Of a stretch of 64,000 nucleotides of DNA, positions 16,286 to 19,200 are shown in pieces. Numbering within the stretch: the first letter of the stretch is position 1; the number at the start of each line of letters is the position of its first letter. The position numbers were made by a program, and so were the translations under genes. The notes beneath the pieces are model-generated. The model ran no database searches. It saw only the letters and a list, made by a program, of their open reading frames with translations, and was not told the origin of the DNA. The stretch is from Cyprinodon diabolis. Lineage: Eukaryota > Chordata > Actinopteri > Cyprinodontiformes > Cyprinodontidae. Where the stretch lies: contig CM060070.1 of NCBI GenBank assembly GCA_030533445.1, positions 27,479,001 through 27,543,000 on the forward strand, given 5' to 3'.

Positions 16286-19200
16286 GTCAGTATTTTAAGA
16301 CTGATCAGTTTTGTGCAACTGCATAAATTGGACTTATGATCTGTAGTCTTGTTGTAGCTACTTTATTTCTTTTGTCATATATTTTTATTTTTAACTACAG
16401 ACTGACACTCCATGTATTATCTATTACAATCACCAAGGAATTTCCTAACTGGAGGTTCAGTATAAACGATTATTAAATGCTGAGATCAGTCAATGGCTGT
16501 GTCCGAATGTCCCCCCTAATCACTATATAGGGCGCTATATAGTGTTTACGCCATTTTAGATGAGTGTCTGAAAATCTAGTGGAGGAAAAAGAAGTGGACT
16601 TTTTGTTATTTGCAACTTGGATTTATTTTTTTCAAGTTTCAAAACTGTTTCCCAAAGCATCCTGCTACCATACAAATTTGGCATTCTGCAAGATTGATTT
16701 CAGATGGATGAGAATGAATAGTTTATAAAAAAATTTTTTTAAAAGTACTCATATTGATCTATGAACAGATTGCTTAACAACAAAGTATTCCTTTTTTTTA
16801 TTATAGTTTACATTACTTTACCTCTTTGAAGCCAAGAGAATCATTATTAAAGCAAAACAACTAAAAGATCACTGCACATCTCCATAACTGGAGATAAACA
16901 CAAGAAGCTGTCAACTCTCTTTTTATTTACATTTTGTTTTTGACCTTTTTCCAGAATAATGCCCAGCTGGTGCGTGAAGTGGACGTGGAAAAGGTGTCGA
17001 CATTTGAAGAGCCATACATCAGTGCGATCAAAATGCTTTGGACCGACCCTGGGATTCAGGAGGCTTACGATCGCAGGAGAGAGTACCAACTCTCTGACTC
17101 GACCAAATAGTACGTCCATAAGGACATATTTGTTTTTGTTGTTCGACTTTTAGAGCATTTTAAGAAAGATCTAGTAGGAGGGAAAGAATTTATGGCAGAT
17201 GGAGAACTGCAGCTGCGTGATTTAACCGTTAATTTAGTTCAGTGGATCCCAGTCCTGCTCCTAAAGGATATCGCTCTGGTAGCACACCTGATTCAAATGA
17301 TTGCAAAGGCTCCACAGCAGCTACCAAGTGCTGCAGGTGCCTTATTCATTTAAACCAGGTGTGTGGCACCAAGGATACACCTAAAGCATGCAGGACTATG
17401 GTACTTCAGGACCAGGATTGAGAACCACTCTTCTAGTTCATTTATGAATTCTAATATTATTGAAAGTTAATATGCAATATGTCCATTTTGATAAAGGCAG
17501 TTGTTGGTATAGTCAGCTGGATCAGCCTGGAATGTCGACACGGATTAGTTTGTCTGCATGTGCATCTCTTTCATACAGTATGTTCCCTCCCTATTCACAG
17601 TTACCTTAGCAGTTTAGAACGAATAGGATCGTCAAGGTATTTGCCCACCCAGCAGGACGTGCTGCGGGCTCGAGTGCCCACCACTGGCATCCATGAGTAC
17701 CCATTTGACCTGGAGAATATTCTCTTCAGGTACTGGTTCCAAGTGCTGCTGCTGCTGCAACAGATAATGATGTCCAAGCTGGCAAACTGTAAATCAGCCT
17801 TTCAACTAATGGGAAAGCCTACGTCTGTCTCAGTGTTCCCTGCACAGCATGAGGCATGCTCTGGGCTGTAACATTACCCTGATGGTGTGCTCTTAAAGAC
17901 TGCTTATAAAGATTTACATAAGATCAGCTAAAACAGCTCAACAATGGGCCCTAGAGGCCCTAGAAAGCTTCGTAATGTTAATGAATTTTCTCTGCTAAGT
18001 ATTTATTTTTGGTCTTTTGGAGCAGCCATCAAGGATGAACCTGTATTTCTAAGAATATTTGAGGGGAAGCGGAAACCTTTCATACTCTGTGGGTACATTT
18101 GCACTTGCAGAAGGTGTTTTATCTGCTGTGATGCTTTACTTTCTATTTCTTTTCTCTTTTTGTGTTTCTCCTTTTCTGTCTCTAGCTATTTAAGTGATCT
18201 TGGTCGTATTTCTGAAGCGTCCTATCTACCAACCCAACAGGATGTGCTTAGGGTTCGAGTCCCAACCACTGGGATCATAGAATACCCTTTCGACTTGCAA
18301 AGCATCATTTTCAGGTAGAGGATAACTTTAAAACACTTTGAGCAACACTGTTTGTACCTTATTTCTTCTTCAGTCTCTAATAAATTAGGTTGTAACATAT
18401 TTAATTTTGTCATTTTTTGAGTTGAACCCCCTATGTTTGATTATAGGCCTCACATAGTTTGTAATCGGCTTTATGTTTTAAGGAGAATTTGATTAAAATT
18501 GTTGTTAATTGATTAATAATATTCATAAACGATCACTAAAAGAAAAAGGTTTAGATGTTGTGCACACTGGCTCTTTTACGTAATAATCAGGACTACGCAC
18601 AATGAATATTTTGTTAATAGACGTCAAAACGTAACTATGATGGCTTTATCCTCATCTTGAAAGGAGTTAAAATCGATCTCCTGATACTGAAGGGCTTAAT
18701 TAATATGGCTGTGACTCAAATCAGTTTAGTATTTATACTTTTATTTATTTTTTTTACACAGCTTAGGTCTGGCCTATGCCTGATTGGCTGTGGGCTTCCT
18801 CTAGCCTGTTGAAACTTTAAATTAGTGCTATTAAGCTACTTTCTTCTAACAGCTGCCTCACAAACCAAAATAAGATTTTTTTTTAAGTTTCTGAGTAACT
18901 TGAAAACACTTTTGTTGAAGAATAGTAAAGATGCAGCATTGCCACTGACCAGGATGTTTTTCAGAAGAACCACTGAGATTTAAATTAAGTCATGAGCAGC
19001 TACACTTTTACAGAAATATTGTGGCTCCTTTGGTTTAGTCTGTAGAATCAAAACATTCAGGTTTCAATATTCTGTCCATTATCCACTTTGGTTCCCTGGT
19101 GCTGAGCTTAATCTATACCAGGAGAAATAAAAATCTGAAATTTTTATCATGGTATTTTGTGTGGGTAAGAAATTGCTCATTGATTGCACTTATGCGGGAG

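What the first reader, a model, noticed from the sequence alone, without database searches (positions are those of the whole stretch)
17601..18314. Tandemly duplicated switch I exon (4a/4b) in a vertebrate Gq alpha gene
Two 129-nt exons with the same start and end phase, both open and both flanked by usable splice sites, encode alternative versions of the 43 residues leading to and containing switch I. Protein identity is 32/43 and the whole core [10 protein letters not shown] and RVPTTG is kept, while silent positions differ widely. That pattern indicates long-term purifying selection on both copies and a probable choice between two Gq proteins with different switch I surroundings. I know of no described exon 4 pair in vertebrate gnaq/gna11.
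Basis: partly seen in the sequence, partly recalled or inferred. Interest (0 to 1): 0.92.

Follow-up and report, generated by a model that had tools for sequence, protein, structure and literature searches.

The report
Known alternative exon in fish G-protein
A fish gene for a G11-type signalling protein carries two versions of the exon that encodes part of its on/off switch; the pair is real and ancient, but it was already described in 2018, so this is a further example of a known feature rather than a discovery.

Summary
Exons 4a (17601-17729) and 4b (18186-18314) are each 129 nt, in the same phase, with AG/GT borders, and encode 32/43 identical residues. The novelty claim fails: Lokits et al. 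2018 (PMC5896119, section 45 read whole) report this exon-4 duplication in GNAQ of coelacanth and gar and GNA11 of coelacanth, gar and teleosts, as alternative exons. The window gene is a teleost gna11-type gene: outside exon 4 it pairs with Anableps 'alpha-11-like' (96/88) inside a set of teleost genes that holds Danio gna11a and gna11b rows (98/94); teleost GNAQ rows lie outside. Among 244 database proteins fetched from capped lists, 36 vertebrate models carry both copies, including sharks and rays. In an exon tree (42 columns) second copies plus GNAQ lie on one side of a branch (98/78), first copies plus tetrapod GNA11 on the other. What remains new is small: 4a here and in Anableps has histidine at the residue equal to human I190, and 4a changes faster than 4b. 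Most likely mechanism (inferred): inclusion of one exon or the other, retuning GTP hydrolysis and GAP contact. Expression of 4a could not be tested.

The parts
16101..16285 (+). exon 2 of gna11 ([15 protein letters not shown]-loop)
16955..17109 (+). exon 3
17601..17729 (+). exon 4a (LEN type): [42 protein letters not shown](R); carries A182 and H190 in human Gq numbering
17730..18185 (+). 456-nt intron between 4a and 4b; GT...AG; too long for steric exclusion by ordinary branch-point placement (inference)
18186..18314 (+). exon 4b (LQS type): [42 protein letters not shown](R); identical in 42/42 residues to Anableps
21990..22119 (+). exon 5 (switch II)
23059..23212 (+). exon 6
23563..23753 (+). 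exon 7 with C-terminus [11 protein letters not shown] and stop

Best explanation
The window holds a teleost gna11-type gene (from a fish near Anableps; species not determined) with the ancient vertebrate tandem pair of exon 4, called exon4.1/4.2 by Lokits et al. Shown: both copies, frame, splice dinucleotides, order, homology to the pairs of other fishes. Inferred: the pre-mRNA is spliced to include one copy. The 4b product is the ordinary, strongly constrained form. The 4a product swaps the end of the helical domain, linker 2 and switch I. Because an energy analysis assigns the helical domain and switch I of Gq to contacts with RGS proteins and PLC-beta3 but not with p63RhoGEF or GRK2 (PMC6499889 passages), the most likely effect of the swap is a change in how fast the active subunit is switched off (GAP response, GTP/GDP cycle) rather than in effector choice. 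In this fish group 4a has drifted further (H190, plus A182 in the window), so it is either a specialised isoform or a copy on its way to loss.
For: Exon anatomy. Prior description. 36 vertebrate two-copy models, by my reading of the 60 two-copy rows among 244 fetched proteins. Exon tree: second copies plus GNAQ on one side of a branch, first copies on the other, 98/78. Gene tree: window with Anableps 96/88, in a 15-row teleost set 98/94. Models with 4a only in medaka (P0102), Neogobius (P0199) and Haplochromis (P0200), and with 4b only in Nothobranchius (P0197). Interface mapping in PMC6499889 (passages).
Against: No RNA evidence for this genome. The 36 vertebrate models put both copies in one protein, so annotation does not show mutual exclusion. 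The 456-nt intron and the in-frame length mean that neither steric hindrance nor nonsense-mediated decay would enforce a choice; no long complementary runs between flanking introns. 4a has 8/42 changes against Anableps while 4b has none. On the mechanism: PMC6499889 itself cites mutagenesis in which one switch I residue and four helical-domain residues mattered for GRK2 binding, and finds RGS contacts with the switch regions nearly the same in Gq and Gi; Lokits et al. suggest an effect on Gbetagamma or downstream signalling instead. The deep split gna11/gnaq in the gene tree is weak (57/89).
Confidence: 0.82

Rival explanations
1. 4a is a decaying relic in this lineage: spliced in rarely or not at all, kept open by chance and by recent loss of constraint.
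For: 8/42 residue changes against Anableps compared with 0/42 in 4b and 9/270 in exons 2, 3 and 5-7. Changes at I190 and V182. Lokits et al. report losses of one copy in other lineages.
Against: Frame and both splice sites are intact. [19 protein letters not shown] is identical in window and Anableps. H190 is shared by both, so that change predates their split. An Anableps gene model includes 4a.
Confidence: 0.25
2. Both exons are included together, giving a Galpha with a duplicated switch I segment (402 residues).
For: Many gene models in teleosts, sharks and rays, and coelacanth join both copies; 129 nt keeps the frame.
Against: A 43-residue insert repeating switch I should disrupt the nucleotide pocket (inference). 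The same kind of product in Anopheles was considered a premature transcript, and it was not detected in Lygus (PMC4553527 passages). Gene models may simply string open exons together.
Confidence: 0.05
3. The window is a teleost gnaq that kept the pair, contradicting the statement of Lokits et al. that no teleost GNAQ has it.
For: Some close relatives are named G(q) subunit alpha, for example medaka P0020 and Carassius P0008. The branch that separates gna11 from gnaq labels in the gene tree has weak support (57/89; one change in 80% of 200 bootstrap trees). No GNA15 neighbour was seen.
Against: Without exon 4 the window groups with Danio gna11a, Leuresthes gna11, Anableps alpha-11-like and gna11b rows (98/94); teleost GNAQ rows (Trematomus, Coregonus, Oryzias melastigma, and a Nothobranchius row that I take as GNAQ) lie outside.
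Confidence: 0.05

Closest known systems
GNA11/GNAQ exon4.1/4.2 pair of fishes (Lokits et al. 2018, PMC5896119)
   Same: Same exon, same gene family, same duplication, reported in teleost GNA11; alternative use inferred there too.
   Different: Not a different system. Added here: shark and ray Gq models with the pair (sharks are not named in the main text); H190 and faster change in 4a of Anableps and the window; tetrapod GNAQ with the second copies and tetrapod GNA11 with the first.
Insect Galpha-q exon 4A/4B (Drosophila, Anopheles, Lygus; PMC5765363 and PMC4553527, passages only)
   Same: The homologous exon of a Gq gene exists in two alternatively spliced versions; Lygus variants diverge from Leu155 on, close to the start of exon 4 here.
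   Different: The arthropod copies fall outside the vertebrate copies in the exon tree (three arthropod genes, 42 columns), so probably an independent duplication; these genes have further alternative exons.
GNAO exons 7-8 pair of vertebrates
   Same: Duplicated, mutually exclusive exons in a Galpha gene (PMC5896119 passages).
   Different: Different gene and different part of the protein (region needed for receptor coupling).

Membership tests
Gq/11 class Galpha | Overall Gq/11 sequence with P-loop, switch I RVPTTG, switch [14 protein letters not shown] and C-terminus [11 protein letters not shown] | tested here: met
   reading; 4a segment: best PDB matches are G11 and Gq
Teleost gna11 (as against teleost gnaq) | Groups with teleost gna11 outside exon 4 | tested here: met
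   with Anableps alpha-11-like 96/88, in a 15-row teleost set 98/94 that holds Danio gna11a and gna11b rows; link of that set to tetrapod GNA11 weak (57/89)
Teleost gna11a (as against gna11b) | Groups with gna11a | tested here: inconclusive
   outside the gna11b subset (99/96) but not resolved together with Danio gna11a
Teleost gna11 (as against teleost gnaq) | GNA15 as the downstream neighbour | tested here: inconclusive
   no further Galpha match in the 40 kb downstream
Vertebrate exon4.1/4.2 pair | Two homologous exons of equal length and phase between exon 3 and exon 5, 4a type first | tested here: met
Vertebrate exon4.1/4.2 pair | Each copy clusters with its own type across species | tested here: met
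   19 first and 18 second copies on opposite sides of one branch, 98/78, 200 of 200 bootstrap trees; 42 columns; first copies are not a clade of their own in the drawn tree
Vertebrate exon4.1/4.2 pair | Mutually exclusive use in mRNA | not testable with these tools
   no RNA-seq; models with 4a only, 4b only and both exist

The most novel reading that the evidence does not exclude
In this fish group the 4a isoform has become a functionally distinct G11: H190 (shared with Anableps) and A182 sit in the hydrophobic network (F75, L78, V182, V184, I190) that YM-254890 and probably FR900359 use, so 4a would be a natural Gq/11 isoform with a changed switch-off rate and reduced sensitivity to these inhibitors, chosen by tissue-specific splicing.
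Probability: 0.15. Interest if true: 0.5.

Novelty: already known. Interest (0 to 1): 0.2.

Why it matters
Little as a discovery, because the exon pair is in print. It has some value as a data point: it shows 4a changing quickly at a pharmacologically important residue. Together with database models it also fits a view that tetrapod GNAQ and GNA11 each kept the opposite member of an ancestral exon pair, so that what fish may choose by splicing, tetrapods have split between two genes.

Tried and rejected
Teleost gnaq identity was considered and disfavoured by the gene tree; its odds were raised from 0.03 to 0.05 on re-checking, because the deep split in that tree is weak. Steric or distant-branch-point exclusion, as in OGDH exons 4a/4b (PMC7969005, abstract and passages): there the branch points lie 25-41 nt after the 5' splice site, here the intervening intron is 456 nt and the AG-free stretch before 4b is 70 nt, so it is not supported. 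Competing intron base-pairing: longest exact complementary runs are 8, 8 and 9 nt, no more than in shuffles. Splicing-factor motifs: in the 4a-4b intron TGCT is 10 against about 2.8 expected, and GCATG is 4 against about 1.1 in the two introns around 4a; but the broader YGCY count (10 against 5.1, reached by 8% of window segments) is not remarkable, seven motifs in three introns plus YGCY were looked at, and no relatives' DNA was available, so these are weak leads only. dN/dS of 4a between species could not be done: proteins but no DNA of related fish were held. The human tandem-exon paper PMC9741552 has no occurrence of GNA.

Literature searches on the exon pair or on Gq splicing; on the residues. 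Of the eight papers I opened (PMC5896119, PMC8024710, PMC6463727, PMC4553527, PMC5765363, PMC6499889, PMC9741552, PMC7969005) I read the outline with abstract, one whole section and passages of the first, and only passages of the others; PMC5896119 is the only one in which I saw the vertebrate exon 4 pair. Its figures and supplements were not seen.

Full report
What is there. The window contains exons 2 to 7 of a Gq/11-class Galpha gene on the + strand, 16.1-23.75 kb. Between exon 3 and exon 5 lie two homologous 129-nt exons, 4a at 17601-17729 and 4b at 18186-18314. Both have AG before and GT after, both complete the split tyrosine codon left by exon 3 and the split arginine codon shared with exon 5, and either gives an open reading through to the stop. 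Identity is 32/43 residues. Nucleotide differences by codon position are 13, 8 and 28; NG86 gives dN 0.234 with dS not estimable. Exon 1 was not found in the upstream 16 kb.

Which gene. The best database match is Anableps anableps 'alpha-11-like' (P0001). Against it the window has 0/42 differences in 4b, 0/158 in exons 5-7, 3/61 in exon 2, 6/51 in exon 3 and 8/42 in 4a. A tree from the gene without exon 4 (34 rows chosen by me from the fetched proteins; one further chosen row, Scophthalmus, was dropped because its borders could not be cut) puts the window with Anableps (96/88) inside a 15-row teleost set with Danio gna11a, Leuresthes and Nelusetta gna11 and gna11b rows (98/94); teleost GNAQ rows lie outside. 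The window is outside the gna11b subset (99/96) but is not resolved together with Danio gna11a, so 'a-type' is by exclusion. The deeper split that ties the teleost set to tetrapod GNA11 rather than GNAQ is weak (57/89; 80% of 200 bootstrap trees), so the name gna11 rests largely on the annotated names of its relatives and on Lokits et al. The species was not determined.

Is it known. Yes. Lokits et al. 2018 (PMC5896119; section 45 read whole; other passages) report duplication of exon 4 in GNAQ of coelacanth and gar and in GNA11 of coelacanth, gar and teleosts. They name zebrafish, cod, medaka, stickleback and pufferfish, interpret it as inclusion of either exon4.1 or exon4.2, and place the duplication before the vertebrate 2R genome duplication. 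They state that teleost GNAQ lost one variant. The window fits this as a teleost gna11. Insects have a comparable exon 4A/4B choice in their Gq gene (PMC5765363 and PMC4553527, passages).

Evidence gathered independently. The three protein searches listed the best 120 of 6430, 733 and 766 hits; together 244 different proteins were fetched. Of these, 60 show two or more copies of the exon-4 motif and 8 show none that could be cut. By my reading of that table the 60 are 36 vertebrate models with a 4a-like then a 4b-like copy (a few with a damaged or partial copy, e.g. P0116, P0017, P0019), 22 arthropod models, one rodent model that looks like an artefact (P0092) and one loach Gq with a different pair (P0132). 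The 36 include shark and ray Gq models, a group not named as such in Lokits et al.. The second search favours proteins with two copies and the database is clustered at 90%, so these counts are not counts of species or of isoforms. I built a tree of 61 exon-4 segments (18 of the 36 vertebrate pairs, one damaged second copy left out, 3 arthropod pairs, 18 single-copy rows, the window; only 42 columns). The 19 vertebrate first copies and 18 second copies lie on opposite sides of one branch (98/78, just under the star threshold; 200 of 200 bootstrap trees). On the second-copy side are also the tetrapod and teleost GNAQ rows (LQS) and one Centropristis Gq-like row that reads LEN. On the other side are tetrapod GNA11, GNA14, hagfish, lamprey and the arthropods, and the first copies do not form a clade of their own, so the first type may be the ancestral one. 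The window 4a sits with Anableps (98/88) on a long branch whose further place (near lamprey and hagfish) I do not trust. This suggests that tetrapod GNAQ kept 4b and tetrapod GNA11 kept 4a; the word reciprocal does not occur in the main text of Lokits et al., but their Figure S6, which I could not see, may show it.

How it probably works. Single-copy models of both kinds exist: 4a only in medaka P0102, Neogobius P0199 and Haplochromis P0200, and 4b only in Nothobranchius P0197 (gene models, not RNA). Alternative use is therefore likely, but no RNA was available. Nothing in the sequence enforces exclusion: the intron between the copies is 456 nt, inclusion of both keeps the frame, the AG-free stretch before 4b is 70 nt, and the flanking introns show no long complementarity. 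Regulation by splicing factors is the remaining guess; TGCT and GCATG are locally enriched but YGCY is not clearly so, and several motifs were tried. At protein level the exon covers the end of the helical domain, linker 2 and switch I (from general knowledge of Galpha; R183 as the switch I arginine is in PMC6499889). Structure-based energy analysis assigns the Gq helical domain and switch I to contacts with RGS proteins and PLC-beta3 only (PMC6499889 passages), so I expect the swap to alter switch-off rather than effector choice. Against this, the same paper cites mutagenesis in which one switch I and four helical-domain residues affected GRK2 binding, and Lokits et al. suggest Gbetagamma or downstream effects. 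All of this is inference.

What is unusual here. In 297 exon-4 segments from the fetched proteins, the residue equal to human I190 is I in 279, L in 13, N in 3, F in 1 (a damaged model) and H in 1, the Anableps 4a; the window 4a also has H. The window 4a also has A at V182, seen in 25 of the 297 segments, none from a named vertebrate. These residues belong to the hydrophobic network described for YM-254890 and probably FR900359; single changes had small effects (at best 7-fold, YM at I190N), combined changes large ones (PMC6463727 passages; PMC8024710 passages). A modest loss of inhibitor sensitivity in the 4a protein is thus possible. 4a differs from Anableps more than 4b does (8/42 against 0/42, p=0.005) and more than exons 2, 3 and 5-7 do (9/270, p=0.0005), which fits specialisation or decay equally well.

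Verdict. A real, correctly read exon pair, in a gna11-type gene, already described in print. Interest is low; the open points are expression and the fate of 4a in this fish group.

Noticed in passing
window 17730-17757: The first codons after 4a, read on into the intron, give RYWFQVL; a Liparis tanakae model that runs past its own 4a reads RYWCQVL (P0198), so the start of this intron may be conserved and could hold a splicing element.
   Followed up: no
P0132 (Triplophysa tibetana Gq): A loach G(q) model with two exon-4 copies of LQS and LQT type, unlike the 4a/4b pattern; possibly a separate duplication in a teleost gnaq, or a model that joins two genes.
   Followed up: no
window 30029-31111 (+) and 38839-40044 (-): Two Tc1/Sleeping Beauty-like transposase open frames by Pfam.
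   Followed up: partly
window 3951-4418 (+): Open frame with a BED zinc finger, perhaps a transposon-derived fragment.
   Followed up: no
window 1-16100: No match to exon 1 of the gene (first 43 residues of P0001) is found here, so intron 1 is probably longer than 16 kb.
   Followed up: partly
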